A stretch of 64,000 nucleotides of DNA from Pseudomonadota bacterium (GTDB lineage Bacteria; Pseudomonadota; Gammaproteobacteria; Burkholderiales; Burkholderiaceae_C). Below are positions 1,197-38,667 of the stretch, in pieces. Both the position numbers and the translations under genes were made by a program. Below the pieces are notes generated by a model. The model had not been told where the DNA came from, made no database searches, and saw only the letters and a list, made by a program, of their open reading frames with translations. The first letter of the stretch is position 1; every line of letters starts with the position of its first letter. Where the stretch lies: assembly GCA_020161065.1 (NCBI GenBank), contig JAIUPH010000039.1, positions 62,001-126,000 on the forward strand, read 5' to 3'.

Positions 1197-2306
1197 ATGC
1201 CCCGTCCGATCGAAGCGCTGATCCATTCCGCGGCCCTGGCCGGCAACCTGGCCCGCGCGCGCGCCGCCGCGCCCGACGCCAAGGTGTGGGCCGTGGTCAA
1301 GGCCAACGCCTACGGCCACGGCATCGAGCGCGTCTACGAAGCCTTGCGCGGCGCCGACGGTTTTGCGCTGCTCGACCTGGCCGAGGCCGAGCGCATCCGC
1401 GCCCTCGGCTGGCGCGGCCCGGTGCTGCTGCTCGAAGGCTGCTTCGAACCGCGCGACCTGGAGCTGTGCTCGCGCCTGGACTTGTGGCACGCGGTGCATT
1501 GCGACGCGCAGATCGACTGGCTGGCCGTGCACAAGACGCACAAGCCGCACCGCGTGTTCCTGAAGATGAACAGCGGCATGAACCGCCTGGGCTTCACGCC
1601 GGCGGCCTACCGCGCCGCCTGGGCGCGGCTGAACGCGCTGCCGCAGGTCGACGAGATCTCGCTGATGACGCACTTCAGCGACGCCGATGGCCTGCGCGGC
1701 ATCGCCCACCAGTTGGCCGCCTTCGAGGCCGCCGTGCAGGACCTGCCGGGCGAGCGCAGCCTGGCCAACAGCGCGGCCATCCTGCGCCACGCGACGGCCG
1801 GCGACGGCCGCGCGGCCGTCCACCACGACTGGGTGCGCGCCGGCATCCTGGTCTACGGCAGCGCGCCCGACTTCCCCGAGCACGACATCGCCCACTGGGC
1901 CTTGCGGCCGGCGATGACGCTGCGCTCGCGGCTGATCGGCGTGCAGCCGCTGGAACGCGGCGACGCGGTCGGCTACGGCAGCAGCTTCACGGCGCCGGGG
2001 CCGATGCGCATCGGCATCGTCGCCTGCGGCTATGCCGACGGCTACCCGCGCCACGCCGCCAGCGGCACGCCGGTGCTGGTGGACGGCGTGCGCACGCGCA
2101 CGGTCGGCCGCGTGTCGATGGACATGCTGGCGGTCGACCTCACGGCGCTGCCGCAGGCCGGCCTCGGCAGCGAGGTCACGTTGTGGGGCCAGGGCCCGGG
2201 CGGCAGCCGGCTGGCGATCGACGACGTGGCGCAGGCCGCCGCGACGATCGGCTACGAACTGATGTGTGCACTGGCCCAGCGGGTGCCGGTGCGTCTGGTC
2301 GTCTGA
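1197..2306 (+). CDS. alr: Alanine racemase
   Basis: PLP enzyme converting L-alanine to D-alanine for peptidoglycan. It has 369 residues, normal for the family. The PLP lysine is K35 in [10 protein letters not shown] and the second catalytic base is Y260 in DAVGYGSSF. The PLP-phosphate-binding segment [10 protein letters not shown] and the substrate-side segment [11 protein letters not shown] are also present. The ATG is chosen because it places K35 where the family has it. radA follows after a small membrane gene. There is no Shine-Dalgarno sequence and a -10-like hexamer sits just upstream, so a leaderless message is possible. alr and dadX cannot be separated by sequence alone; I use alr because no dadA is adjacent. 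Confidence 0.95.
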
Positions 2307-2342
2307 TCCACCCGCCAACCGCCAACGTTCGAGGAGAGCTTC

Positions 2343-2600
2343 ATGCACTACGTCTGGATGGCCATCGTCGGCCTGATCGTCGGCGCCATCGCGCGCTTCC
2401 TGCTGCCGGGCGAGCAGAAGATGGGCTGGATCCTGACCAGCCTGCTGGGCATCGCCGGCTCGCTGATCGCCGGCTTCATCGGCCAGGCCATGGGCTGGTA
2501 CGCGCCGGGCCAGCCGGCGGGCTGGATCGCCTCGGTGATCGGTGCCATCGTGCTGCTGTTCATCGTGCAGAAGCTGCGCGGCAGCGGCAGTTCCGTCTGA
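2343..2600 (+). CDS. GlsB/YeaQ/YmgE-family small membrane protein
   Basis: An 85-residue integral membrane protein of the transglycosylase-associated (GlsB/YeaQ/YmgE) family, function unknown, often stress-linked. Three hydrophobic segments are visible: about 4-22, 29-47 and 57-76. Glycine-rich turns (GLIVGAIARFLLPGEQKMGW, then SLLGIAGSLIAGFIG) match the family pattern. GAGGAGAG just before the ATG is a good ribosome binding site. It sits between alr and radA on the same strand, with short gaps to both. The family name is historical and does not imply transglycosylase activity. Confidence 0.85.
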   Translation: MHYVWMAIVGLIVGAIARFLLPGEQKMGWILTSLLGIAGSLIAGFIGQAMGWYAPGQPAGWIASVIGAIVLLFIVQKLRGSGSSV

Positions 2601-2619
2601 CGGCTTAGACCCCGAGCGG

Positions 2620-3984
2620 ATGGCGGGCAAGTCGGTCTACACCTGCCGCGACTGCGGCGGCACCAGCCCCAAGTGGCTGGGCAAGTGCCCGCACTGCGGC
2701 GCCTGGAACACGCTGGACGAAGGGCCGGCGGAAGCCGCCGGCGGCAGCGCCAAGAACCGCTTCCAGGCGCTGGCGCGCAGCCAGCCGGTGGCCACGCTCA
2801 GCGAGATCGACGCCGCCGAGGTGGCGCGCACGCCCACCGGCCAGGAGGAGCTGGACCGCGTGCTCGGCGGCGGCATCGTGCCCGGCGGCGTGGTGCTGAT
2901 CGGCGGCGACCCCGGCATCGGCAAGAGCACGCTGCTGCTGCAGGCGCTGGACGCGCTGTCGGCGCAAATGAAGGTGCTCTACGTCACCGGCGAGGAAAGC
3001 GGCGCCCAGGTGGCCTTGCGCGCGCGCCGCCTGGGCCTGGCCGGCACGGGCGTGCGCGTGCAGGCCGAGATCCAGCTCGAACGCATCCTCGCCACGCTGG
3101 ACGCCGAGCGCCCGGCGTTCTGCGTGATCGACTCGATTCAAACCTTGTACAGCGAGCAGCTCAGCTCGGCCCCCGGCTCGGTGGCCCAGGTGCGCGAATG
3201 CGCCGCGCAGCTGACGCGCGCGGCCAAGACCAGCGGCTGTGCGATGGTGCTGGTCGGCCACGTCACGAAAGAAGGCGCGCTGGCCGGCCCGCGCGTGCTG
3301 GAGCACATCGTCGACACCGTGCTGTACTTCGAGGGCGACACGCACAGCAGCTTTCGCCTGGTGCGGGCGATCAAGAACCGCTTCGGCGCGGTCAACGAGA
3401 TCGGCGTCTTCGCGATGACCGAGAAGGGCCTGAAGGGCGTCAGCAACCCGAGCGCGATCTTTTTGTCGACGCACGGCGCGCCGGTGCCGGGCTCTTGCGT
3501 GCTGGTCACGCTGGAAGGCACGCGGCCGCTGCTGGTGGAGGTGCAGGCGCTGGTCGACAGCGGCGGCGCCAGCCCGCGGCGGCTGTCGGTCGGCCTCGAC
3601 CGCGACCGCCTGGCCATGCTGCTGGCCGTGCTGCACCGCCACGCCGGCGTGGCCTGCATGGACCAGGACGTGTTCGTCAACGCCGTGGGCGGCGTGCGCA
3701 TCGCCGAGCCGGCGGCCGACCTGGCGGTGCTGCTGGCCATCCAGAGCAGCCTGCGCGGCCGGCCGCTGCCGCGCGGCTTCATCGCCTTCGGCGAGGTCGG
3801 CCTGGCCGGCGAGGTGCGCCCCGCGCCGCGCGGCCAGGAGCGCCTGCGCGAAGCGGCCAAGCTCGGCTTCGGCATCGCCGTGGTCCCCAAGGCCAACGCG
3901 CCACGCAAGGCGCTGTTCGAAGGCCTGGAGATCCACGCGGTGGAGCGCATCGAGCAGGCGATGGACGTGGTGCGCGGCTTGTAG
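2620..3984 (+). CDS. radA: DNA repair protein RadA
   Basis: DnaB-like ATPase that helps branch migration in recombinational repair. It has 454 residues. The N-terminal C4 zinc finger has C9, C12, C23 and C26. A RecA-type ATPase follows, with Walker A GGDPGIGKST (K102). The RadA-specific KNRFG motif is at 252-256. The C-terminal third is a Lon-protease-like domain (VGGVRIAEPAADLAVLLA). The reading frame is open upstream to 2542, inside the preceding gene. I chose the ATG at 2620 because it puts the zinc finger at the usual distance from the N-terminus and gives the family length. Confidence 0.96.
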   Translation: MAGKSVYTCRDCGGTSPKWLGKCPHCGAWNTLDEGPAEAAGGSAKNRFQALARSQPVATLSEIDAAEVARTPTGQEELDRVLGGGIVPGGVVLIGGDPGIGKSTLLLQALDALSAQMKVLYVTGEESGAQVALRARRLGLAGTGVRVQAEIQLERILATLDAERPAFCVIDSIQTLYSEQLSSAPGSVAQVRECAAQLTRAAKTSGCAMVLVGHVTKEGALAGPRVLEHIVDTVLYFEGDTHSSFRLVRAIKNRFGAVNEIGVFAMTEKGLKGVSNPSAIFLSTHGAPVPGSCVLVTLEGTRPLLVEVQALVDSGGASPRRLSVGLDRDRLAMLLAVLHRHAGVACMDQDVFVNAVGGVRIAEPAADLAVLLAIQSSLRGRPLPRGFIAFGEVGLAGEVRPAPRGQERLREAAKLGFGIAVVPKANAPRKALFEGLEIHAVERIEQAMDVVRGL

Positions 3985-25233: not shown

Positions 25234-26217
25234 CTATTCGGTCTTCACCTTCGCTTCGCGCACGATGTCCGCGAACTGCTTCAGGCTCTTGCGCATGTGG
25301 GCGTCGAACTGCTCGGGCGTGGAGCCGGTGACGGTCAGGCCCATCTCCTTCAGGCGCGGGGCCAGCGCTTCGGAGCGGATGGCCTTGTTCACGTCGGCGT
25401 TGACCTTGGCGATGATCTCGGGCGGCGTCGCGCGCGGCAGGCCGATGCCGAGGTTGGACGCGAAGTCGAAGTCGGGGAAGGTCTCGCCGGCGGCCGGGAT
25501 CTGCGGTGCCGAGGGGTCGCGCGTCAGGCCGGCGACGGCGATCGGCTTCAGCCGGCCCGACTTGACGTGCGGCATCGAGCTGAACAGCGGGTCGAGCAGC
25601 AGGTCGACGCGGCCGTCGAACACGTCGCCGTAGGCGCCGCCGGCGCCCTTGTAGGGGATGTGCACCATCTCGATGCCGGTCAGCAGGTTGAGCTTCTCGC
25701 CGGCCAGGTGCATCGAGCTGCCGGCGCCGGCGGTGGCGTAGCTGAGCTTGCCCTTGTTGGCCTTGCCGTAGGCGACCAGCCCGGCGAGGTCGTTGAACGG
25801 CGCCTTGGGCGACGCCGACAGCAGGATGTTGCCGACCACCAGCATCGTGCCCGAGAGGTCGCGCAGCGTGTCGAATGGCATGTCCTTGCGCAGCGCCGGC
25901 TGGATGCCCAGCACGCCGATCGCCAGGATGCCCAGCGTGTAGCCGTCGGGCGCCGACTTGGCGACGTAGTCGGTGCCGCTGATGGTGCCGGCGCCGGGCT
26001 TGAACTCGACGATGATGGGCTGCTTCCAGGTCTTGCCGAGTTCCGATTCGAGCAGCCGCGCCAGGATGTCCAGCGCGCCGCCGGGCACGTTGGGCACGAT
26101 GATGCGCACCGGCTTGGCCGGCCAGTTGGCGGCCGCGCCCTGGGCGCGGGCGAGCAGCGGCGCGCCCAGCAGCGCGCCGCCGGCGGCCTGCAGCAGTTGC
26201 CGGCGATGGTGGTTCAT
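25234..26217 (-). CDS. TctC/Bug-family periplasmic binding protein
   Basis: A 327-residue extracytoplasmic binding protein of the tripartite tricarboxylate transporter family. The Arg-rich signal NHHRRQLLQAAGGALLGAPL comes first. Family signatures are KPVRIIVPNVPGGALDILAR, FKPGAGTISGTDYVAKSAPDGYT, YKGAGGAYGDVFDG and FDAHMR near the end. No membrane subunits (TctA/TctB) are near, as is common for Bug proteins. Its ATG overlaps the stop of the aconitase-X small subunit by 4 nt, so it is the last gene of the five-gene operon. Ligands of the family are small carboxylates. Confidence 0.92.
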   Translation of the reverse strand: MNHHRRQLLQAAGGALLGAPLLARAQGAAANWPAKPVRIIVPNVPGGALDILARLLESELGKTWKQPIIVEFKPGAGTISGTDYVAKSAPDGYTLGILAIGVLGIQPALRKDMPFDTLRDLSGTMLVVGNILLSASPKAPFNDLAGLVAYGKANKGKLSYATAGAGSSMHLAGEKLNLLTGIEMVHIPYKGAGGAYGDVFDGRVDLLLDPLFSSMPHVKSGRLKPIAVAGLTRDPSAPQIPAAGETFPDFDFASNLGIGLPRATPPEIIAKVNADVNKAIRSEALAPRLKEMGLTVTGSTPEQFDAHMRKSLKQFADIVREAKVKTE

Positions 26218-26663
26218 GGCGATTCGTCTCCTGCGGCGGAAGGCGGTTTGCGGATCTCGACGATGCCGCGCTCGGCATCGACGCTCACCCAGTCGCCGCT
26301 GGCGATGCAGTCCAGCGGGTCGCGGTCGAAGTCGGTCATCGCCGGCGCGCGCGTGACCACGGCGCCGAGCGCGATCTTGGTCGTCATCTCGTTGAACAGC
26401 AGCGCCGCCGGCGCCACGCCTAACGAGCGTGTCAGGTGGAAGGCGTTGGACCAGCCCGAGCTGCCCTTGGCGCCGGGGAACACCAGCACCTTGCCGGCGA
26501 AGCTGATGCCGCGCAGCTCGTGCCGGGTCTCGACGATGGTGCCGGTGCGCGAGTCGATGCCGCCCCAGCCCGAGATGTGCATGCGCGTCACCAGCGCCGG
26601 GCCTTCGGCGCGACCGGGCACGACGCAGCGGCCGCGCAGCACGAGCGTGCGGCCGCCGCTCAT
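26214..26663 (-). CDS. Aconitase X small subunit (DUF126)
   Basis: A 149-residue DUF126 protein, the swivelling small subunit of the type II aconitase X. Motifs: GISFAGKVLVFPGAKGSSGW and FNEMTTKIALGAVVTRAPAM. Partner large subunits in this family dehydrate cis-3-hydroxy-L-proline or mevalonate-5-phosphate; the substrate here is unknown. It overlaps both neighbours by 4 nt (ATGA), so stoichiometric synthesis with the large subunit is expected. The start at 26663 is fixed by this overlap and by the conserved RGRCVVPGRAEGPAL N-terminus. Confidence 0.9.
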   Translation of the reverse strand: MSGGRTLVLRGRCVVPGRAEGPALVTRMHISGWGGIDSRTGTIVETRHELRGISFAGKVLVFPGAKGSSGWSNAFHLTRSLGVAPAALLFNEMTTKIALGAVVTRAPAMTDFDRDPLDCIASGDWVSVDAERGIVEIRKPPSAAGDESP

Positions 26664-27943
26664 CGCAGGCCGCCGCTCCAGCGGCCGCTGCAGGCGGCGT
26701 CGATGCAATCGGCGGTGCTGCCGAACCAGGCCTGCAGGCCCAGGATGGCAGGCAGGTAATGCGCCTGCTTGGCCGAGTCCAGCGCCACCACGCGCGTGCC
26801 TTTGGGCGCGGCGCGGCTCATCGCCGAGCAACTGTCGCTCATCAGCACGCCGCCGGCGGCCTCGATGGTGGCGGTGTAGCCGTTCTGGTCGGCCAGCGCC
26901 TTGATGGCGCGCGGCGTGAAGATCCACAGCGCGCAGTCGGCGTGCACCTTGCGGCCCTGCAGCAGTTGCGCCGCGTGCCAGACCTGCTCGATCGAGTAGT
27001 GCGGGCAGCCCAGCATCACGTAGTCGACGCGGCGCTCGCTGGCGGTGGCGTTGAGCCGCTCGTAGGCTTCGCGCCGTTCGCGCTCGCCGTAGACCAGGCG
27101 TTCGCGCGCGGCCTGGCCGCCGAACGCCGCCTCGGCGCTGGGCGCCTCGGGCGTGATGCCCACCAGGTGGTACATCTCGAGGCCGCCCGACGACGACGCG
27201 GCGGCGCCGAAATGCTTCAGCCGCGCCAGGTCGGGCCGGCGGCCGAAGCCTTCGACCACCGGCACGCGCTCCTGCACGCGATCGCCGATCCAGTAGCCCA
27301 GCAGGCCCCAGTCGGCCGTGGTCTCGGCGGCGGCCTGCACCTGCACGTGGTGGCTGCCGCGGCGGTTGGCGTCGAGGTGGTAGCCCCAGTACGGGATGCG
27401 GCGCGTCAGCATCGCGGCGCCCACGCTCTCGCGGCCCTCGGTGTTGGTGCGCGCGCCCAGCACCGAGTTGCAGTAGATCACCGCCGACGATTCCATCCAC
27501 GCGCAATGCTCGCCGCGCACCGGCAGGTTGCCCAGCAGGTAGGGCGTGCAGGTGTTGGAGGCCTGCACGCCGAGGCCGGCGGTCCAGGCCTCGCCCTGGC
27601 GATAAAAGCGCACCGTCTCTTCGTCGACGCCCATGCGCGCCGCCTGCGCGGGGTCGAAGCCGAGCTGCGTGTGCATCGTGAAAGCGCGCGCCGGCGGAAT
27701 CGGCAGCACGGCGTCGCTGTCCAGGCTGAACTCGCTGAACACCGCGTCCATGCCGCCGCCGCGCTGCGCGTAGCCGCGCATGAAGGGCGTGGTGGCGCTG
27801 ATCGAGGCGACGACGTTGTCGGTCTCCACCAGCCGCTCGGCGCCCAGCGCGCGGCCGTAGCGCAGCAGCAGGTCCATCGCCGCGGCCACGGCGGGGCCGT
27901 CGCGGCCGTCGGTCATGGCGCTTTCTTCGGCGGTTAGCTTCAT
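26660..27943 (-). CDS. Aconitase X large (catalytic) subunit (DUF521)
   Basis: A 427-residue catalytic subunit of aconitase X, an iron-sulfur dehydratase. The N-terminus begins MKLTAEESAMTDGRDGPAVA, which is the family start. Cys residues able to hold the cluster lie in SNTCTPYLLGN, LGCPHYSIEQV and SDSCSAM. YCNSVLGARTNTEG is the conserved substrate-loop motif. It is encoded separately from the small subunit, as in bacterial type II enzymes. Its start overlaps the FAD-oxidoreductase stop by 4 nt. The reaction is inferred from the family, and which hydroxy acid is used cannot be read from sequence. Confidence 0.9.
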   Translation of the reverse strand: MKLTAEESAMTDGRDGPAVAAAMDLLLRYGRALGAERLVETDNVVASISATTPFMRGYAQRGGGMDAVFSEFSLDSDAVLPIPPARAFTMHTQLGFDPAQAARMGVDEETVRFYRQGEAWTAGLGVQASNTCTPYLLGNLPVRGEHCAWMESSAVIYCNSVLGARTNTEGRESVGAAMLTRRIPYWGYHLDANRRGSHHVQVQAAAETTADWGLLGYWIGDRVQERVPVVEGFGRRPDLARLKHFGAAASSSGGLEMYHLVGITPEAPSAEAAFGGQAARERLVYGERERREAYERLNATASERRVDYVMLGCPHYSIEQVWHAAQLLQGRKVHADCALWIFTPRAIKALADQNGYTATIEAAGGVLMSDSCSAMSRAAPKGTRVVALDSAKQAHYLPAILGLQAWFGSTADCIDAACSGRWSGGLR

Positions 27944-29397
27944 GCCGCCGCCACGGTCTCGGCGCTGCGCAGGTACACGCCTTGCTGCTGCAGCGTGCGC
28001 TGCAGGCGCGCCACGTCCACCGCGCGCGGCGCCACGCCGGCGCCGGCGGCCAGTGCGGCGGCCACGCCGGCGGCCTGGCCGGTGATCCAGCATTGCGGAA
28101 TCTCGCGCATGAAGCCGTGCGAGTTCTTGTCGCAGCTGATGTGGCGGCCGCAGGCCAGCAGCCCGTCCAGCGCCTGCGGCAGCAACGCGCCGTAGGGGAT
28201 GCTGATGTTCGGGAAGGCCGGGCTCACCGCCGGCGTGACGCCGATCTCGTCGGGCCGCGGCGTGCCTTCGGGCCAGCGGCTGCGCAGCACCGCGTCCACG
28301 CCCTTCAGCCGCCGCGCGTGGCGCACGCCGATCTGCGGCGCCGACAGCATCATGAAAGCCTGCTCGAAGCCCGGCGCATGGGCGCGGTAGTGCTCCAGGT
28401 GCTGGCGCATCGCGTGGTGCGAGCGCACCTCCACCGCGGTGAGGTCGTCGACGTCCAGCGCCGAGTAGCCGGTCTGCCGCGGGCCCATGAACAGCGCGAT
28501 GTCGTCGCGCCAGCTGACGAAGGGGCGCTCGAACAGGCCGCAGGCGGCGCGGCCCTGCTCCATGAACTGCGCATAACGCTCGGGTTCGCCGGCCCTGAAG
28601 GCGATCCAGCGTCGCATGTCGACGCCGCCGAACAGCCAGGCGGTGTTCATGCAGTGGTGCACGTCGGCGGCTTCGATGTCGTTGTCGAAGGCGGCGCCGG
28701 CGCGCGCGAACAGGTCGCCGTCGCCGGTGGCGTCGACCACCACCTCGGCGCGGATCGCCATGCGGCCTTCCTTGCTCTCGAAGATCACGCCCTTGACGGC
28801 GCCGCCCTCGACGATGGGCTCGGTGCCCCAGCCGTGGTAGACCAGCTTGACGCCGCGTTCGAGCACCAGGTCCTGGCTGAGCAGCTTCAGCCGCTCGGGG
28901 TCGATGGTCGGCGACCACGTCACCACGCCGTGGTAGGCCGCGGTGCGCTGCGCCCAGTGCGCCGCCTTGGCCGCGTCGCGCGAGCCCCAGTCGGCGCGCG
29001 GCGGGCCGGCCACCGCGTCGGCCGGCAGGCGGTCGAACAGTTCCTCGGCGAAGCCGCGGATCACCAGCTGGCCCTGCCAGTCGCTCATGCGGTCGATCCA
29101 GATCACCAGCCCGCCGGTGGAAAGCCCGCCCAGGTGGTTGTAACGTTCGAGAAGCGTCACGTCGGCGCCCGCCTGGGCCGCCGCCGCCGCCGCCGCGGTG
29201 CCCGAGGGCCCGCCGCCGACCACCAGCACGCCGGTGCGGTGATACACCGGGATGCGGCGCGCCGCCTCTTCGTGCCAGCCGTGGTCGGCGCGCGGCGCGC
29301 GCTGCTGCTCGCGGCCGAAGATGTCGGACTGCAGGATGCGCTCGTCGCTGCGCACCGTGGTGTGGACCGTGGGGTGCACGGTGGAACGCACGGTCAT
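27940..29397 (-). CDS. FAD-dependent oxidoreductase (PF12831-type)
   Basis: A 485-residue flavoprotein. The N-terminal region has a dinucleotide-binding motif, VVGGGPSGTAAAAAAAQAGA, about 55-75, then LLERYNHLGG. The FAD-closing motif is VVDATGDGDLFARAGA, and CGRHISCDKNSHGFMRE with WITGQAAGVAAALAA is the C-terminal FAD contact. This architecture marks FAD_oxidored proteins related to fumarate-reductase-like and tetracycline-type flavoproteins. The roughly 45-residue N-terminal extension is Thr/His/Val-rich and unusual. It overlaps both neighbours by 4 nt. The electron acceptor and substrate are unknown. Confidence 0.88.
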   Translation of the reverse strand: MTVRSTVHPTVHTTVRSDERILQSDIFGREQQRAPRADHGWHEEAARRIPVYHRTGVLVVGGGPSGTAAAAAAAQAGADVTLLERYNHLGGLSTGGLVIWIDRMSDWQGQLVIRGFAEELFDRLPADAVAGPPRADWGSRDAAKAAHWAQRTAAYHGVVTWSPTIDPERLKLLSQDLVLERGVKLVYHGWGTEPIVEGGAVKGVIFESKEGRMAIRAEVVVDATGDGDLFARAGAAFDNDIEAADVHHCMNTAWLFGGVDMRRWIAFRAGEPERYAQFMEQGRAACGLFERPFVSWRDDIALFMGPRQTGYSALDVDDLTAVEVRSHHAMRQHLEHYRAHAPGFEQAFMMLSAPQIGVRHARRLKGVDAVLRSRWPEGTPRPDEIGVTPAVSPAFPNISIPYGALLPQALDGLLACGRHISCDKNSHGFMREIPQCWITGQAAGVAAALAAGAGVAPRAVDVARLQRTLQQQGVYLRSAETVAAA

Positions 29398-31088
29398 CTC
29401 GGCTCGCGGGTCAGCACCGCGCCTTCGGCCAGCGGCCCCACGCTGCGGCGGTAGATCTGCAGCCAGCCGCGGTCGAACAACGGCGCGGCGGGGCGCCAGG
29501 CGGCGCGGCGGCGCTCCAGCTCGGCGGCGTCGACCACCAGGTCGCAGCGCCGCGTGTCGAGGTCGATGCTGATGGTGTCGCCGTCGTGCACCAGCGCCAG
29601 CGGGCCGCAGACCGCGCCTTCGGGCGCCACCTCGGCGACCACCAGGCCCTTGCAGACCAGGCCCGACAAATGGCCGTCGGTCAGCATCGCCACCTGCTCG
29701 GCGAGGCCGGCGCCGTCGATCGCGAACACCACGCGCGAGGCGCCGCCGCCCATGCCCGGGCCGCCGCAGACGCCGGCGCCGCGCATCACCAGCACCTGGC
29801 CGGGGCGCACGCCGCCGTCCTGCAGCGCCTGGATGGCGGCGTCGCTGCTGTCGAAGCAGACCGCCGGGCCGCTGAAGCGCCGCGTCTTGCGCGGCGCGAT
29901 GCCGGTCTTGACGATGCCGAAGCCCGGCGCCAGCGTGCCGCGCAGCAGCGTGATCGCCTCGCGCGCGGCCACCGGGCGGTGCAGCGGGCGGATCACCTCG
30001 GCATCGGCCACCGCGGCCGCCGCCAGGTTGGCGGCCAGCGTGGCGCCGCTGACGGTGGGCGCCTCGCCATCCAGCAGCGGCAGCAACTGCTGCAGCAGCG
30101 CGCGGCAGCCGCCGGCGGCGTCGAACTGCTCGATGGTGTGCAGCCCCACCGGCCGCACGCCGGCCAGCACCGGCGTCTGCGGCGCCAGGGTCTCGAACAG
30201 GCCGTAGACGTCGACCGCGCTGGCGGCCTCGGTGGCCACCGCCTGCAGGTGCTTGATGCAGTTGACCGAGCCACCCACCGCCAGCACCGCGCGCACCGCG
30301 TTGGCGAAGGCGCCGGGCGTCAGGATGTCGCGCGGCTTGAGGTCGCTCCAGACCATGGCCACGATGCGCGCGCCGGCGGCGCGCACCGCGGCCCACATCG
30401 CCGCGCCGTTGGCCGCCACCGGCGTGCTGCCGGGTAGCGCCAGGCCCAGCGCCTCGGTCGCGATGTGCATCGAGTTGGCGGTGCCCATGCCCGAGCAGAC
30501 GCCGGGCCCGCGGATGGCCTGGCGGCTCATGCCGACGACGCGCTCGACGTCGAGCCGGCCGACCTGGGCGTGCATCGCGGCGACAAACACGTCCTCGATG
30601 TCGACATGCTCGCCGTCGTACTCGCCGCTCGGCTGGTAGCCGGTGCAGACCAGCAGCGTGGGGATGTTCAGCCGCGCCGCGGCCATCAACTGCCCCGGCA
30701 CGGTCTTGTCGCACGAGGCCAGGCAGACCATGCCGTCGAGCAGCGCGCCTTCGACCTGGGCCTCGATGTCGTTGGTGACGAGGTCGCGGCTGGCCAGCAT
30801 GTAGGCGCCGCGGCCGCCGGCGCCGACGACGAAGTCGCTCGGCGCCGTGGTGCGCACTTCCAGCGGCACGCCGCCGGCAGCGCGGATGGCCTCCTTCAGG
30901 ACCGGCACGATGCCGTCGAGGTGCGCATAGCAGGCGGCCAGCCCCGAGCTGCTGTTGACGATGGCGATCTTGGGCTTCTCGGCATCGGCCTCGGACAGGC
31001 CCATGCCCTGCCACTGCGCATTGCGCACCGCCCAGAGGTAGGAGCCGCGGGGGAAGTTGCTGCGCAGCTTGCGCGCCGGAGAGCTCAT
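29394..31088 (-). CDS. IlvD/Edd-family dehydratase
   Basis: A 564-residue iron-sulfur dehydratase that removes water from a sugar acid or 2,3-dihydroxy acid. Cluster ligands are in CLASCDKTVPGQLMA and GPGVCSGMGTANSMH. KPKIAIVNSSSGLAACYAHL, GFGIVKTGIAPRKTRRF, VMRGAGVCGGPGMGG and LTDGHLSGLVCKGLVV are the conserved segments. The genomic context differs from biosynthetic ilvD, so a catabolic dehydratase is more likely. The ATG at 31088 is preferred over 31106, which would overlap the divergent regulator start. It is the first gene of the operon controlled by the repeat at 31100-31126. Confidence 0.92.
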   Translation of the reverse strand: MSSPARKLRSNFPRGSYLWAVRNAQWQGMGLSEADAEKPKIAIVNSSSGLAACYAHLDGIVPVLKEAIRAAGGVPLEVRTTAPSDFVVGAGGRGAYMLASRDLVTNDIEAQVEGALLDGMVCLASCDKTVPGQLMAAARLNIPTLLVCTGYQPSGEYDGEHVDIEDVFVAAMHAQVGRLDVERVVGMSRQAIRGPGVCSGMGTANSMHIATEALGLALPGSTPVAANGAAMWAAVRAAGARIVAMVWSDLKPRDILTPGAFANAVRAVLAVGGSVNCIKHLQAVATEAASAVDVYGLFETLAPQTPVLAGVRPVGLHTIEQFDAAGGCRALLQQLLPLLDGEAPTVSGATLAANLAAAAVADAEVIRPLHRPVAAREAITLLRGTLAPGFGIVKTGIAPRKTRRFSGPAVCFDSSDAAIQALQDGGVRPGQVLVMRGAGVCGGPGMGGGASRVVFAIDGAGLAEQVAMLTDGHLSGLVCKGLVVAEVAPEGAVCGPLALVHDGDTISIDLDTRRCDLVVDAAELERRRAAWRPAAPLFDRGWLQIYRRSVGPLAEGAVLTREPR

Positions 31089-31099
31089 CGCATTTAATA

Positions 31100-31126
31100 T
31101 TGACATGTCCACAAAAGACGTGTCAA
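31100..31126. promoter_or_regulatory. Inverted-repeat operator, marR/ilvD-type divergent control
   Basis: TTGACATGTC and GACGTGTCAA are inverted arms that match at 9 of 10 positions and are separated by 7 bp. The left arm contains the regulator ATG (31105). On the minus strand the right arm reads TTGACA, a -35 consensus for the operon. A MarR dimer bound here would block both genes. An A/T-rich -10-like TAATAT lies at 31095-31100. Confidence 0.65.
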
Positions 31127-31608
31127 GGCGCAAGACCGCCGCCCGCACGGCGCCGACGCCGGGCCGCGAGGCCGAGGTCAACCGCTACCTGGCCGCCTAC
31201 ATCATGGGCGTGGCCAACCGGCTGGCGGCCGGCGCGTCCAGCCACTACCGGCGCCACTTCAACCTGGGCATGTCGGAGTGGCGAACGCTGATGGCCATCG
31301 GCAGCAGCCGCCACCGCATCATGCGCGAGGTGGCGCAGATGGCCGACCTCGACGTCGCGCTGGCCAGCAAGAGCCTGAAGCTGCTGCAGCAGCGCGGCTG
31401 GGTCGCCATCGAGCCGACGCAGGGCCGCGGCCGCGCCTCGCGCGTCAGCCTCACGGCCGCGGGCCTGGACATCCATCGCCAGCTGCGCGCCTCGGCGCAG
31501 CGCCGCCAGCGCCGGCTGCTCTCGGCCTTCAGCGAAGCCGAGGCGCAGGCGCTGTGGTCGCTGCTGCAGCGGGTGGAAGAACGGGTGGCCTACATCAACG
31601 ACCGCTGA
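31105..31608 (+). CDS. MarR-family transcriptional regulator
   Basis: A 167-residue winged-helix regulator. The core runs from AYIMGVANRLAAG through RRHFNLGMSEWRTLMAIGS, MREVAQMADLDVALASKSLK (recognition helix) and QRGWVAIEPTQGRGRASRVS (wing), and ends in a dimerization helix. It faces the five-gene operon and its start codon lies in an inverted repeat, so autorepression and control of the operon are likely. The ligand is probably a pathway intermediate. An upstream frame is open to 31057, but the ATG at 31105 gives the usual N-terminus. No ribosome binding site is clear. Confidence 0.9.
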   Translation: MSTKDVSRRKTAARTAPTPGREAEVNRYLAAYIMGVANRLAAGASSHYRRHFNLGMSEWRTLMAIGSSRHRIMREVAQMADLDVALASKSLKLLQQRGWVAIEPTQGRGRASRVSLTAAGLDIHRQLRASAQRRQRRLLSAFSEAEAQALWSLLQRVEERVAYINDR

Positions 31609-31638: not shown

Positions 31639-33276
31639 TCAGCGCCAGTCGTCGATCTTCACCGTCTTCGCGCGCGCGAAGTTGCCGCCCACCATCTTCC
31701 ACGCCGCCTGCGTCTCGCCGCCCAGCACCACCACGCTGATGTCCTGCGCGCGGTACTTGCGCACCATCTGTTCGGGCGGCGCGGCGTGCATCGAGGCCCA
31801 GGGCTCGACGCCGGCCACCGCGTGCGGCTTGATCAGCGTCTGCACCCAGGGGTCGTCCCAGTATTCGCGGGCGCTGACCCGGGCGTTCTCGGCCAGCCAG
31901 TCGATCAGTTGCTGCTTGGCGTGGAAGCCGCGCTCGACGAAGCCGCGCGCGGCGCTGGGGTCGAGCAGCAGGATCGGCGGGCTGTAGGGCTCGCAGGCGG
32001 CCAGCGCGTGGCGGAAGCGCTGCTCCCAGGTGTCGCGCGGGCCGTAGCCGCTGATGGTGTACCAGCCGCCCAGGAAGACGGTGACGGTGCTGTCCGCCGC
32101 TTCGTAGCCATGCTGCACGTGCAGCGGCTCCCAGGGGCTGCGCTCTTCGTTCTCGGCCCAGGTGCAGGCGTAGTTGTAGGCGTTGCCCAGGCTGCCCATG
32201 TAGGTGTCGCCGATCACCGAGCCGCCCTGCAGGTTCTGGCTCAGCAGCGCGTGCGCGCGGCCGATGGTCGCGTTGGCGTGGCTGTAGGGCCCCATCGCGC
32301 CGATGCCGCAGTGCATGCCGATCTCGTGGCGGATCGGCCCGTTGACGATGGCCGGCGCCGCCCAGCTGGTGGTGCTGCTCTGGCGCGCCGTCATGCCGCT
32401 GGCGGCCATCGCCAGGATGACGGGCAGGTACGCCGGCCGCGCGCCGGCCATCACCGCGTTGACGGCGACCTTTTCCACCGTGTACTGCCAGGCCTCGCGG
32501 TAGTTGGTGGGGCGCATCTGGCCGACCACTTCGTCGGGCCGGCGGCGGGTGCCGGCCAGCATCGCGGCCACGCGTTCCTCGGTGGGCAGCACGATGGGCA
32601 GGTGGTCGGTCCAGCGTTCCTGCTCGAAGCGCGCCAGCAGCTCGTCTTCGGGCGCCGGCGGCAGCAAACGCGGCGTGTCTCGGTCGAAGCCCACGCCGGC
32701 CAGGTCTTCGGCGGTCAGCTCGCCGGTCAGGCCTTCCAGCAGCACCTGCAGGAAGGGGCGCTTGTTGATTGGGTCTTCGCCTTCGATGTAGGCGCGCAAC
32801 TGTTCGGGCGGCACGCCGACCACGGGCTGCGGCACGAAGGCCTGGCGCAGCGTGGGCGTGCCATTGACCCGCGCCGCCTGGCGCGCCAGGCGGGCGAAGA
32901 CATGGGTGTGAACGGCGACGGTGGGAACCCCGTCAGCCTCGACAGCCATTGCGAGCCCGGCGACCGTCGGGCAGCAAGTGCTTCAGAGGCCGACGGCGAA
33001 CACCGCGGCGTCGGCTTCCCGGACGACGCGCGCGCGCATCGCGGGGTCGTCGACCCAGCTTTCGCGCGGCTTGACGATGGCGGTCTTCACGCCGGGCAGG
33101 TGGGCGGCGAACCAGGCCTGCAACTGCTGCATGAAGACTTCGGAGTTGTCGAACAGGCAGTCCACCAGGTGCAGCGTCTTGCCTTCCAGCGTAGCCAGGC
33201 GCGGCGCCAGGCGCTTGGCCGAGACCTGGGGCGCATAACCGCGCGGGTCGTGCACCGTGAGCAGGGGGGACGTCAT
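31639..33276 (-). CDS. UGSC-like selenoprotein (in-frame TGA read as Sec98), fused to an unknown C-terminal domain
   Basis: One reading frame of 546 codons is broken by a single TGA at 32983-32985. The residues before it (AVFAVGL) and after it (STCCPTVAGLAMAV, then GVPTVAVHTHVFARLARQAA and VPQPVVGVPPEQL) fit one fold, the UGSC redox family. That family carries Sec at this place, in U-x-x-C. Here the motif is U98-S-T-C101. The upstream half alone would be a 97-residue fragment lacking the redox site. From about 150 to 545 a second domain follows (REAWQYTVEKVAVNAVMAGA, SSTTSWAAPAIVNGP, YNYACTWAENEER) that I do not recognise. A SECIS-like hairpin starts 5 nt after the TGA. AAGGA precedes the ATG. 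A thioredoxin-reductase-like gene lies 37 nt upstream. A nonsense mutation or two separate genes are the alternatives. Confidence 0.8.
32949..32977 (-). promoter_or_regulatory. Bacterial SECIS-like hairpin after in-frame TGA
   Basis: Numbering from the first base after the TGA, bases 6-9 pair with 31-34, base 10 (U) is bulged opposite two bases, and 11-15 (GCCCG) pair with 24-28 (CGGGC). C17-G22 closes a GGUC apical loop at 18-21. In Escherichia coli fdhF the GGUC loop is at about 19-22 after the UGA, with a bulged U below the upper stem. Distance, bulge and loop therefore all agree with SelB recognition. It was folded by eye. Confidence 0.72.
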
Positions 33277-33313
33277 GGCAGTGGTCCTTTCCGTGGTTCT
33301 TGCGGTTCTTCGT

Positions 33314-34231
33314 TCAAGCCAGAAACTCGTCGGCGGCGCGGGCGGCGGCGACGGCTTCGTCGATCGCCGTCGCCGCCTGGCCGTCGTTGCCGCGGCGCGC
33401 CGTGCCGGCGGCGAACAGGCCTTGCGCCGCATCGTCGGCGATGCGGCCGTCGCTGTCCAGCGCGACCGTGGCCGGCGCGCCGGCCAGCCATTCGGTGGCC
33501 GGCTGCAGGCCGATGTAGATGAACACGGCGTCGACCGCCAGCGTGCGCCCGTCGCGCAGGCGCAGGCCGCCGACGGCGGCGTCGCCCAGCACCTCGGCCA
33601 CTTCGGTGCGCGGCTGCAGGTCGATGCGCGGCTGCGCCTGCACCCGCTGCTGCCACGCCGGCCGCGCGCGCAAGGCCTCGCCGCGCAGCAGCAGGTGCAC
33701 CCGCGCCGCGTGGGCGGCCAGCGTCAGCGCTTCCTGGCAGGCGGCGTCGCCGCCGCCGACCACGGCCACCGTCTTGCCGCGCAGCAGCGGCGCGTCGCAG
33801 CTGGCGCAGTGGCTCACGCCCTTGCCGGCCAGGCGTTCCTCGCCGGGCACGCCCAGCGCGCGCAAGCGGCTGCCGGGCGCCAGGATCAGCGCGCGGGCGC
33901 TGACGGCGTTGATGGCGTTGACGGCGCTCAGCGCCGCATCGGCGCCGCGCACGAGCCAGCGCCCGCCGTCGCGCTGCACGGCGCCGGCCTCGTCGGCGAT
34001 GCAGGCGGCGCCGGCGTCCATCGCCGCTTCCTGCGCCATCGGGCACAGGTCGTAGCCGGCAATGCCGTCGGGATGCTCGGGCAGGCCTTGCACCGCTTCG
34101 ATCGACAGCAGCAGCCCGCCGGGCAAAGCGCCGGTGAAGACCTGCACGCGCCGGCCCCGGCGCGCCGCTTCGGCGGCGGCCGTCAGCGCGGCGATGCCGC
34201 CGCCGACGACGGCGATGTCGGCCTCAATCAA
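33314..34231 (-). CDS. Thioredoxin-reductase-like NAD(P)H flavoprotein
   Basis: A 305-residue pyridine-nucleotide-disulfide oxidoreductase resembling TrxB. FAD-binding AVVGGGIAALTAAAEAARRG is at the N-terminus. The redox pair is CASC in GVSHCASCDAPLL. The NAD(P)H site is VAVVGGGDAACQEA, and GLFAAGTARRG near the end contacts FAD. The start is a TTG at 34231 that overlaps the TctC stop by 8 nt; no ATG is suitably placed. It lies directly upstream of the selenoprotein gene, so it may supply electrons to its U-x-x-C site. Whether it acts on thioredoxin is unknown. Confidence 0.88.
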   Translation of the reverse strand: MIEADIAVVGGGIAALTAAAEAARRGRRVQVFTGALPGGLLLSIEAVQGLPEHPDGIAGYDLCPMAQEAAMDAGAACIADEAGAVQRDGGRWLVRGADAALSAVNAINAVSARALILAPGSRLRALGVPGEERLAGKGVSHCASCDAPLLRGKTVAVVGGGDAACQEALTLAAHAARVHLLLRGEALRARPAWQQRVQAQPRIDLQPRTEVAEVLGDAAVGGLRLRDGRTLAVDAVFIYIGLQPATEWLAGAPATVALDSDGRIADDAAQGLFAAGTARRGNDGQAATAIDEAVAAARAADEFLA

Positions 34232-35189
34232 GCTTGATGCCGGCGCGCTTGACGACGCCGCTCCACTTGTCGATCTCGCTGCGGATCAGCGCGTCGTACT
34301 CGTCGGCGCTGGAGCCCACCGGCTCCATGCCCAGCGCCACCATGCGCTCGTGCAGCTCGGGCGACTTGACGGCGCGCGCGATGTCGGCGCCCAGGCGCTG
34401 GCGCAGCTCGCGCGGCACGCCGGCCGGCGCGATGACGCCGATGATGCTCATCGCGCTGAAGCCCGGCACCGCCTCGGCGATCAACCCGATCTCGGGGTTG
34501 GCCGCGGCGCGCCGCGGGCTGGACAGCGCCAGCACCTTCAGCCGACCGTCCTTGACGAAGGGCAGCGACGAGAACAGCACGTCGAACAGCAGCGGCACGC
34601 GGCCGCCGATCACGTCCTGCTGCGCCGGCGCGCTGCCCTTGTAGGGCACGTGCACGAGGTCGAGCCCGGCCATCGCGTTGAGCATCTCGCCGGCCAGGTG
34701 GGTGCCGGTGCCGACGCCCGGCGTCGCGTAGCTCAGCTTGCCGGGGTGCTGCTTGGCGTAGGCGATCAGCTCGGTGATGTTGGCCACCGGCAGCGACGGG
34801 TGCGCGAACAGCCCGAAATGCCCCAGCGCCAGCTGCGAGACGCCGGCCAGGTCGCGCGTGGTGTCGTAGGGCAGCCGCGGCTGCAGCGCCGGGTTGATCA
34901 TGTGGGCGCTGATCGCCATGCCCAGCGTGTAGCCGTCGGGCGGCGACTGCGCCACGAACTGCGTGCCCAGGATGGTGCCGGCCCCGGGCTTGTAGTCGAT
35001 CACCACGGTCTGCTTCCAGATCGACTGCATGCGCTCGGCCAGCAGCCGGGCCACGGTGTCGGTGGGTCCGCCGGGCGCGAAAGGCACGATCAGCTTGACC
35101 GGCCTTGATGGCGCCCACGCGGTCTCTTGCGCGCGCAGCGCGCCGGGCGCGGCGGCCAGCGCCAGCAGCAGGTGGCGGCGGTTGGGCAT
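34224..35189 (-). CDS. TctC/Bug-family periplasmic binding protein (second copy type)
   Basis: A 321-residue binding protein with the signal peptide NRRHLLLALAAAPGALRA. Family signatures are RPVKLIVPFAPGGPTDTVAR, YKPGAGTILGTQFVAQSPPD and VPYKGSAPAQQDVIGG. It is clearly related to the protein at 25234 but shares only moderate identity, so it is not a recent duplicate. ATG at 35189 is preferred; a TTG at 35198 is possible. It is the first gene of the reductase-selenoprotein group. No TctA/TctB subunits are in the window. Confidence 0.92.
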   Translation of the reverse strand: MPNRRHLLLALAAAPGALRAQETAWAPSRPVKLIVPFAPGGPTDTVARLLAERMQSIWKQTVVIDYKPGAGTILGTQFVAQSPPDGYTLGMAISAHMINPALQPRLPYDTTRDLAGVSQLALGHFGLFAHPSLPVANITELIAYAKQHPGKLSYATPGVGTGTHLAGEMLNAMAGLDLVHVPYKGSAPAQQDVIGGRVPLLFDVLFSSLPFVKDGRLKVLALSSPRRAAANPEIGLIAEAVPGFSAMSIIGVIAPAGVPRELRQRLGADIARAVKSPELHERMVALGMEPVGSSADEYDALIRSEIDKWSGVVKRAGIKLD

Positions 35190-35370
35190 GAGTGGCAAGC
35201 CTTGCGGTGACGGTGGATCGACAGCGCCCCAGTGTGCCGGCTTCGCGCCGGCGGCCGAAGGGGTGCAACCCTCGGGTGGCCATCATGCAGAATCCGCGGC
35301 GCCGCGCCCGCTGGAGGCCTGCCGCCGCTGGGGCGGCCCGCGCGCCGCGCGCTTGGGGGAGAACCGCCGC

Positions 35371-37098: not shown

Positions 37099-38667
37099 AT
37101 GACCCTGCGCCGCGCGCAGCGCCGGCGTTCAGGCAAGCTCGGGGCCCTCGCAACGCCCGGGTCTTCTGCCTTGCCTGCTTCCTTGTTCACCTTCGACAAC
37201 AGCTACGCCCGCGAGCTGCCGGGCTTCTACGTGGCGTGGCAGCCGGCGGCGGTGCCGGCGCCGCGCCTGCTGCGCTTGAACGCCGCGCTGGCCGAAGAAC
37301 TGGGGCTGGACGCGCAGGCCCTGGCCGCGCCCGACGGCGTGCAGGTGCTGGCCGGCAACCGCGTGCCCGAAGGCGCGTCGCCGCTGGCCCAGGCCTACGC
37401 GGGCCACCAGTTCGGCGGCTTCTCGCCGCAGCTCGGCGACGGCCGCGCGCTGCTGCTCGGCGAGGTGATGGACCGCCACGGCCGCCGGCGCGACATCGCG
37501 CTCAAGGGCTCGGGCCGCACGCCGTTCTCGCGCGGCGGCGACGGCAAGGCCGCCGTCGGCCCGGTGCTGCGCGAATACCTCATCGGCGAGGCCATGCAGG
37601 CGCTGGGCATCCCCACCACGCGCGCGCTGGCCGCGGTGGCCACCGGCGAGGCGGTGCAGCGCGAGCGCGCGCTGCCCGGCGCCGTGCTGACGCGCGTGGC
37701 CGCCAGCCACGTGCGCGTGGGCACCTTCCAGTTCTTCGCCGCGCGCGGCCAGCACGACGACGTGCGCCGCCTGGCCGACTACGTCATCGCCCGCCACGAC
37801 CCCGATCTGGCCGCCGCGCCCGACCGCTACCTGGGCCTGCTGCGCCGCGTCGCGCAGCGCCAGGCGGCGCTGATCGCGCAGTGGATGAACGTCGGCTTCA
37901 TCCACGGCGTGATGAACACCGACAACATGACGATCAGCGGCGAGACCATCGACTACGGCCCTTGCGCCTACATGGAAAGTTATGACCCCGAGGCCGTGTT
38001 CAGCTCCATCGACCACGGCGGCCGCTACGCCTACCGCAACCAGCCGCTGATCGCCCGCTGGAACCTCGCCCGCCTGGCCGAGACGCTGCTGCCGCTGCTG
38101 GCCGTCGACGGGGTGACGCCCGACGACGCGGTGGCGCAGGTCACCGAGGTGATCGATGCCTTCCCCGCCTGGTACGACGCGCACTGGCGCGCCGGCCAGC
38201 GCGCCAAGCTGGGCCTGCAGACCGCGCAGCCCGAAGACGCCGCGCTGGCCGACGACTGGCTGGCGCTGCTGCACGCGCAGCAGGTCGACTTCACGCTGGC
38301 CTGGCGGCACCTTGCCGATGCGGCCGATGCGGGCGAACGCCGCGCCGAGCCGCTGCGCGACCTGTTCGTCGACCGCGCCGCCGCCGACGCCTGGCTGCAG
38401 CGCTGGCGCGCGCGCAGCGACGCTGAAGGCGCCGACACCAGCGCGCGCGCCGCGGCGATGCGCGCCGTCAACCCGATCGTGATCCCGCGCAACCACCTCG
38501 TCGAGGAAGCGCTGGCCGCCGCCGCCGACCACGACGACCTGGCGCCTTTCGAGCGGCTGCTCGACGCCGTGACGCAGCCCTTCACCGAGCGCGCCGGTTT
38601 CGAGCGTTATGCCGAACCGGCGCCGCGCGAGCTGACGGCCGGCTACCGCACCTTCTGCGGCACCTGA
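37099..38667 (+). CDS. selO: Protein adenylyltransferase SelO (YdiU)
   Basis: A 522-residue pseudokinase-fold enzyme that AMPylates proteins during oxidative stress. [13 protein letters not shown] at residue 32 is the family N-terminus. [18 protein letters not shown] is the glycine-rich segment, [20 protein letters not shown] holds the nucleotide-binding Lys, and [18 protein letters not shown] holds the catalytic Asn and Asp. The C-terminus TFCGT has the conserved Cys of the regulatory disulfide. In this homologue the protein ends there, without selenocysteine. The start is the first ATG; the first 20 residues are basic and poorly conserved, so a later start is possible. Confidence 0.93.

What the first reader, a model, noticed from the sequence alone, without database searches (positions are those of the whole stretch)
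31639..33276. Candidate selenoprotein: one gene split by an in-frame TGA (UGSC-like, U98-S-T-C101)
Two adjacent minus-strand frames share the same phase and are separated by a single TGA plus 11 sense codons. Read through, the junction AVFAVGL-U-STCC continues into GVPTVAVHTHVFARLARQAA and VPQPVVGVPPEQL. That is the layout of the UGSC redox family, in which this position is selenocysteine. The motif here is U-S-T-C rather than U-G-S-C, and the family domain is fused to a roughly 390-residue domain that I do not recognise. The fusion and the motif variant appear new to me.
Basis: partly seen in the sequence, partly recalled or inferred. Interest (0 to 1): 0.92.

Follow-up and report, generated by a model that had tools for sequence, protein, structure and literature searches.

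The report
Selenium-containing redox enzyme (UGSC family)
A bacterial gene that looks broken by a stop signal is almost certainly one intact gene in which that signal is read as the rare selenium amino acid; it belongs to a known but functionally uncharacterised family.

Summary
Confirmed. Window 33276-31639 (minus) is one 545-codon frame with a single internal TGA (32985-32983, residue 98, U-S-T-C); its N-terminal domain is Pfam UGSC. The genome has selA, selB, tRNA-Sec, selD and a formate dehydrogenase gene with an internal TGA. At 93 places in this family, the window's included, the codon is TGA in 79, Cys in 11, other in 3. A GGUC-loop hairpin follows the TGA in Sec copies and is lost in Cys copies. 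None of 24 close TGA copies has a Shine-Dalgarno-like site before a restart codon. The read-through protein models well (pLDDT 95.5). New as far as my searches show: the Sec half of the UGSC domain is a distant relative of GrdB/PrdB. A thioredoxin-reductase-like gene is a recurrent neighbour, and the genome has a second SelB beside an unfused UGSC pair. Function is unknown; I favour a reductase fed by that flavoprotein.

The parts
31639..33276 (-). Selenoprotein gene: 545 residues read through TGA at residue 98; final stop 31641-31639
   Evidence: Pfam UGSC; 82-84% identical full-length relatives with the same TGA
32983..32985 (-). In-frame TGA read as selenocysteine (U98 of U-S-T-C)
   Evidence: TGA in 79, Cys codon in 11, other in 3 of 93 places, this one included
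32955..32972 (-). Apical hairpin of the SECIS-like element, GGUC loop at 32965-32962 (+18 to +21 after the TGA); one A.C mismatch in this copy
   Evidence: pairing in 24 Sec sequences (20 distinct), lost in 9 Cys sequences
32710..33276 (-). UGSC domain (PF24696), residues 1-189; its Sec half resembles the Sec domain of GrdB/PrdB proteins
31642..32670 (-). Second domain, residues 203-545; no Pfam or NCBIfam match shared by its members; also exists as a separate protein elsewhere
33314..34231 (-). Upstream neighbour: thioredoxin-reductase-like FAD/NAD(P) oxidoreductase with a CxxC (CASC), likely electron donor
   Evidence: TIGR01292 E 9.7e-58, 195.3 bits, below that model's cut-off of 343.45; PF07992; found in 20 of 79 related loci, co-directional in 19
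34224..35198 (-). TctC-type carboxylate-binding protein, same direction, overlapping the previous gene by a few bases
   Evidence: PF03401 E 1e-69
31057..31608 (+). MarR-type regulator, opposite strand, downstream
   Evidence: PF12802

Best explanation
The gene encodes one two-domain selenoprotein of the UGSC family. UGA at codon 98 is decoded as selenocysteine by the genome's SelB and tRNA-Sec, helped by the hairpin that begins about 10 bases after it (strongly supported by comparison; probability about 0.97). The Sec sits after a beta strand, just before the helix that starts at Cys101, so U98 and C101 form a redox pair (inferred from model and motif). I infer that the neighbouring thioredoxin-reductase-like flavoprotein passes NAD(P)H electrons to this pair, and that U98 acts on a small, probably carboxylic, substrate bound between the two domains by chemistry like that of GrdB/PrdB, i.e. 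reductive cleavage or reduction at the carbon next to an acid group (about 0.4). Shown: reading frame, conservation, sel genes, hairpin, distant GrdB/PrdB similarity, neighbour. Inferred: Sec insertion in vivo, electron donor, substrate and reaction.
For: selA, selB, tRNA-Sec (76.5 bits) and selD above cut-off in the same genome. FdhA with an internal TGA 2.7 kb upstream of selA. TGA 79, Cys 11, other 3 of 93 places. The 7-pair hairpin forms in 80.0% of cells in Sec rows (shuffle mean 73.3, 0 of 500 reach it), with pairs 12-27, 15-24 and 16-23 changed on both sides; in Cys rows 30.2%, no better than shuffles. No Shine-Dalgarno-like 4-mer before any start codon in the 16 codons after the TGA in 24 of 24 close TGA rows. 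AlphaFold pLDDT 95.5, pTM 0.93 for the read-through protein. Sec/Cys98, C101 and P118 invariant in 41 UGSC domains (four rows lacking Cys98 or C101 were not among them; in the 62-protein alignment that includes them both are 90% or more). UGSC profile against four GrdB/PrdB-type sequences: hhalign probability 95.7, score 61.0, against 19.3 for the best of 100 column shuffles, 19.0 with the template reversed and 20.3 with the query reversed. Thioredoxin-reductase-like neighbour in 20 of 79 loci.
Against: The window's own 66-base fold is unremarkable (z -1.32; 17 of 200 shuffles as good), has one A.C mismatch, and a 48-base cut prefers another fold. In the 7-pair test, two of five measures do not beat the shuffles (pairs changed on both sides 127 of 500, pair types 336 of 500), and a slide of -1 gives nearly the same covariation score (0.218 against 0.225) though only 47.1% of cells pair. 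The 4-pair core slid by -3 pairs in 95.0% of cells, with no change on both sides. NCBIfam UGSC score (54.6) is below its cut-off of 125. Three relatives have Leu or Met at the Sec position, and one Cys relative (L025) has an in-frame TGA elsewhere (codon 377). The ATG at codon 12 is kept in 14 of 24 close TGA rows. No protein evidence. PF07355 did not hit this protein at E 0.001; singly, only L139 of the four GrdB/PrdB sequences scores well. 59 of 79 loci show no flavoprotein neighbour, some because contigs end.
Confidence: 0.9

Rival explanations
1. Two separate genes in one phase: a short UGSC N-terminal protein ending at the TGA and a 436-residue protein starting at the ATG 11 codons later.
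For: The ATG at codon 12 is kept in 14 of 24 close TGA rows. In other genomes the two domains are separate, the break lying after the UGSC domain (L026, L031; own contig C16).
Against: The split would fall inside the UGSC fold, between a strand and its helix. The codons between TGA and ATG are conserved as protein. Eleven relatives have Cys there, and nine of them appear as frames without any stop. No Shine-Dalgarno-like 4-mer precedes any restart codon in 24 of 24 close TGA rows, and 10 of 24 lack the ATG at codon 12. The natural splits seen lie at the domain boundary, not here.
Confidence: 0.02
2. A pseudogene or sequencing error: a Cys or other codon mutated or misread to TGA.
For: A single-base change separates TGA from TGC/TGT, and Cys versions exist. 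One relative (L025) has a TGA at another place, so stray TGA codons do occur in this family.
Against: The same TGA occurs in many separately assembled genomes from different phyla with the frame otherwise open, and with the hairpin where TGA is present but not where Cys is.
Confidence: 0.01
3. A selenoprotein, but a general thiol/peroxide redox protein of thioredoxin-like behaviour rather than a GrdB/PrdB-like substrate reductase.
For: UxxC motif; thioredoxin-reductase-like neighbour; PMC2398784 suggests a Trx-like fold for UGSC (section 9 read).
Against: In the model the UGSC domain's best-scoring rows are flavodoxin- or receiver-like, with no thioredoxin among the 50 rows shown (not an exclusion). 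Profile similarity is to GrdB/PrdB. The gene sits with carboxylate-binding and dehydratase genes and carries a conserved second domain.
Confidence: 0.3

Closest known systems
UGSC family (seleno)protein, PF24696 / NF041046
   Same: N-terminal domain hits PF24696 at 89.8 bits (cut-off 25), UxxC with Sec at the family position.
   Different: U-S-T-C instead of U-G-S-C; below the NF041046 cut-off; fused to a second domain in one chain. U-S-T-C and the fusion recur widely.
UGSC/Unknown_1 fusion of PMC2398784 (2008)
   Same: A UGSC selenoprotein fused to a conserved domain of unknown function, from ocean metagenomes (section 9 read).
   Different: Not established: Figure S1 was not available, so identity of Unknown_1 with this second domain is likely but unproven.
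GrdB / PrdB (glycine and D-proline reductase selenoproteins, PF07355)
   Same: The Sec half of the domain (residues 85-189) aligns by profile; U-x-x-C, then helix, then a GIPTV-like strand.
   Different: No PF07355 hit at E 0.001; domain 2 shows no similarity to the GrdB/PrdB set (score 19.0, at control level); no PF07355 match at E 1e-5 in this genome.

Membership tests
UGSC family (PF24696) | Score above Pfam gathering threshold | tested here: met
   89.8 bits against 25
UGSC family (NF041046 equivalog) | Score above NCBIfam cut-off | tested here: not met
   54.6 bits against 125, E 1.1e-14
UGSC family | UxxC with Sec or Cys at the first position | tested here: met
   U98-S-T-C101; TGA 79, Cys 11, other 3 of 93
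Bacterial selenoprotein | Genome has selA, selB, selC, selD | tested here: met
   all above cut-off
Bacterial selenoprotein | Hairpin just downstream of UGA with a G-U containing apical loop, kept with Sec and not with Cys | tested here: met
   80.0% of cells paired in Sec rows, 30.2% in Cys rows; the window's own fold alone is weak, and some measures and slides do not separate
Bacterial selenoprotein | Sec present in the protein | not testable with these tools
   needs 75Se labelling or mass spectrometry
GrdB/PrdB (PF07355) | Match to PF07355 | tested here: not met
   absent from Pfam hits at E 0.001
GrdB/PrdB superfamily | Profile similarity of the Sec-bearing domain beyond shuffled controls | tested here: met
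   score 61.0 against at most 19.3 in 100 shuffles and 20.3 in reversals; only four template sequences; 43.7 with the three PrdB-like ones alone
GrdB/PrdB | Reductive cleavage of an amino acid substrate | not testable with these tools
   no assay
Thioredoxin fold | Fold of the UGSC domain | tested here: inconclusive

The most novel reading that the evidence does not exclude
UGSC proteins are a distinct branch of the GrdB/PrdB selenoenzyme superfamily that, together with a second catalytic domain of unknown fold and a dedicated thioredoxin-reductase-like flavoprotein, reductively cleave a carboxylic substrate in bacteria that need not be amino-acid fermenters; in some genomes the cassette travels with its own SelA/SelB.
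Probability: 0.3. Interest if true: 0.72.

Novelty: new member of a known kind. Interest (0 to 1): 0.42.

Why it matters
UGSC is reported as one of the more abundant selenoprotein families in aquatic metagenomes (PMC2398784 and PMC9402790, passages seen), and a 2026 review counts it among families whose functions remain largely uncharacterised (PMC13188914, passages seen). A case with full sel genes, a conserved hairpin, Cys relatives, a recurrent reductase-like neighbour and a sequence link to GrdB/PrdB gives a concrete, testable biochemical hypothesis. It also shows a gene that reads as two ORFs, or as broken, if TGA is taken only as a stop.

Tried and rejected

Literature: 4 searches of open PMC papers. 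No listing or passage that I saw links UGSC to GrdB/PrdB, but subscription papers and supplements were not searched. Of PMC2398784 I read section 9 and passages; of PMC13188914, PMC9312934, PMC9402790, PMC5029168 and PMC7539508 passages only; of the rest the search listing.

Full report
Observation. The minus strand from 33276 to 31639 is one frame of 545 codons plus stop with one internal TGA at 32985-32983 (residue 98), followed by 11 sense codons and an ATG at 32949. Because the DNA is GC-rich and long spurious frames abound, I relied on comparison rather than frame length.

Family. The read-through protein matches Pfam PF24696 (UGSC) at 89.8 bits over residues 8-162, well above the gathering score; the piece after the TGA alone matches only the end of the model (35.1 bits, residues 2-53 of the shorter ORF). 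NCBIfam NF041046 also matches (E 1.1e-14) but below its strict cut-off. So it is a divergent UGSC member. The domain after residue 203 matches no Pfam or NCBIfam family shared by its members: at E 0.1, 7 and 4 families, each hit by one of 52 members.

Selenocysteine machinery. The window's genome (41 contigs, 98.7% complete) has selA, selB, tRNA-Sec and selD, each above its family cut-off, and a formate dehydrogenase alpha gene with an internal TGA 2.7 kb upstream of selA. Absence of the machinery, the first would-be refutation, is excluded.

Relatives. In 399 genomes of the order, 42 have a match at E 1e-10, many matches being to the second domain only; the 11 other same-family genomes listed have none. 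Of 111 loci from both sets, 95 have a match covering the Sec position. After dropping two repeats and re-reading three misaligned ones, 93 places, the window's own gene included, give TGA 79, TGC 9, TGT 2, TTA 1, CTG 1, ATG 1. The motif is USTC in 24, UGSC in 20, UDGC in 10, CSTC in 9, with UGTC, USSC, UPGC and others. Exchange between Sec and Cys and almost nothing else is the classic signature of selenocysteine. These places were found by similarity to this protein, so USTC is over-represented. Of the 66 loci with a single long match, 65 have no TAA or TAG and at most one TGA; the exception is L122. Among the 11 Cys rows, nine are stop-free, L132 was too short for that list, and L025 has a TGA at codon 377 where relatives have Trp, which I cannot explain.

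SECIS-like hairpin. In 24 Sec sequences (20 distinct), seven pairs around a GGUC loop at +18 to +21 form in 80.0% of cells (shuffle mean 73.3, 0 of 500 reach it; covariation score also 0 of 500); pair 15-24 occurs as GC, CG and AU, and pair 16-23 as AU and GC. The inner four pairs form in 92.5%. In 9 Cys sequences the same structures form in 30.2% and 44.4% of cells, not above shuffles. Against this: the numbers of pairs changed on both sides and of pair types are ordinary (127 and 336 of 500 shuffles reach them), a slide of -1 has nearly the same covariation score (0.218 against 0.225) with 47.1% paired, and in the 4-pair test a slide of -3 pairs in 95.0% of cells, with no change on both sides. 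Shuffle counts also ignore relatedness. The window's own copy has one A.C mismatch and folds only slightly better than shuffles (z -1.32, 17 of 200 as good), so the hairpin case rests on the family and on the contrast with Cys copies. The loop resembles that of E. coli fdhF as I recall it.

No restart. In 24 close TGA rows, 14 have the ATG at codon 12 after the TGA, and none has a Shine-Dalgarno-like 4-mer before any start codon in the next 16 codons. Where the two domains are separate genes the break lies after the UGSC domain, not at the Sec codon (L026 and L031). AlphaFold with 62 sequences gives the read-through protein pLDDT 95.5 and pTM 0.93, with U98 between a strand (90-96) and a helix (101-114). 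A split at the TGA would cut the fold.

Surroundings. Upstream on the same strand are a TctC-type binding protein (34224-35198) and a thioredoxin-reductase-like flavoprotein (33314-34231) with a CASC motif. Downstream lie a MarR regulator on the other strand, an IlvD/EDD-type dehydratase, an FAD oxidoreductase, both aconitase X parts and another TctC protein. In 79 related loci (tblastn E 1e-10, 45% coverage, flanks often cut by contig ends) the flavoprotein is found in 20, co-directional in 19; TctC in 6, SelB in 4, SelA in 3, IlvD in 1, the MarR and aconitase X queries in none. Of the genes queried the flavoprotein is therefore the most recurrent partner, mostly among the closer relatives; the dehydratase and aconitase X genes look local.

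Most likely working. NAD(P)H electrons reach the U98-C101 pair through the flavoprotein, and the selenol acts on a small carboxylic substrate in a site shared by both domains, by chemistry of the GrdB/PrdB kind. The reading frame, the Sec codon, the hairpin and the neighbour are shown; Sec insertion in vivo, the electron route, the substrate and the reaction are inferred.

Known or new. UGSC selenoproteins are known, abundant in aquatic metagenomes and functionally uncharacterised (PMC2398784, PMC9402790 and PMC13188914, passages seen). A UGSC fusion to a conserved 'Unknown_1' domain was reported in 2008, where a Trx-like fold was suggested (section 9 read); I could not open the figure to compare the domain. 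In passages seen, PMC2398784 lists UGSC (no Pfam domain) and PrdB/GrdB (pfam07355) as separate families. The gene is therefore a new member of a known kind. What I did not find in print, within four searches of open papers, is the link between UGSC and GrdB/PrdB.

Noticed in passing
genome contig C16, 67957-69849 (L053): The genome has a second SelB (314.8 bits, 42% identical to the main one) near an unfused UGSC gene with its own TGA (72093-72599), an unfused domain-2 gene (match 73075-73686) and an ADP-forming acyl-CoA synthetase-like gene; only one tRNA-Sec exceeds the cut-off. Two SelB in one genome could mean divided labour between SECIS types.
   Followed up: partly
L063, L064, L109, L119: selB (all four) and selA (three) lie within the fetched flanks of the UGSC gene, suggesting a cassette that travels with its own decoding genes.
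   Followed up: no
L025, codon 377 of the minus-strand frame 1501-3126: A relative with Cys at the Sec position has an in-frame TGA where aligned relatives have Trp (SPWEP); a real defect, an assembly error or something else.
   Followed up: no
L087, L091, L105: Relatives with Leu-Asp-Thr-Cys or Met-Asp-Thr-Leu at the Sec motif, apparently having lost the selenium/sulfur residue while keeping both domains; L087 and L091 have a further family copy nearby on the other strand, L105 two further copies on the same strand.
   Followed up: no
26214-31181 and 25234-26217: Aconitase X large and small parts, IlvD/EDD-type dehydratase, FAD oxidoreductase and a TctC protein look like a carboxylate catabolic cluster beside the selenoprotein.
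   Followed up: partly
37099-38667: A SelO-type protein adenylyltransferase gene lies nearby; as I recall, bacterial SelO is linked to selenium in name only.
   Followed up: no
31786-33522: A 578-codon open frame on the plus strand covers the gene; I take it for a by-product of codon bias.
   Followed up: no
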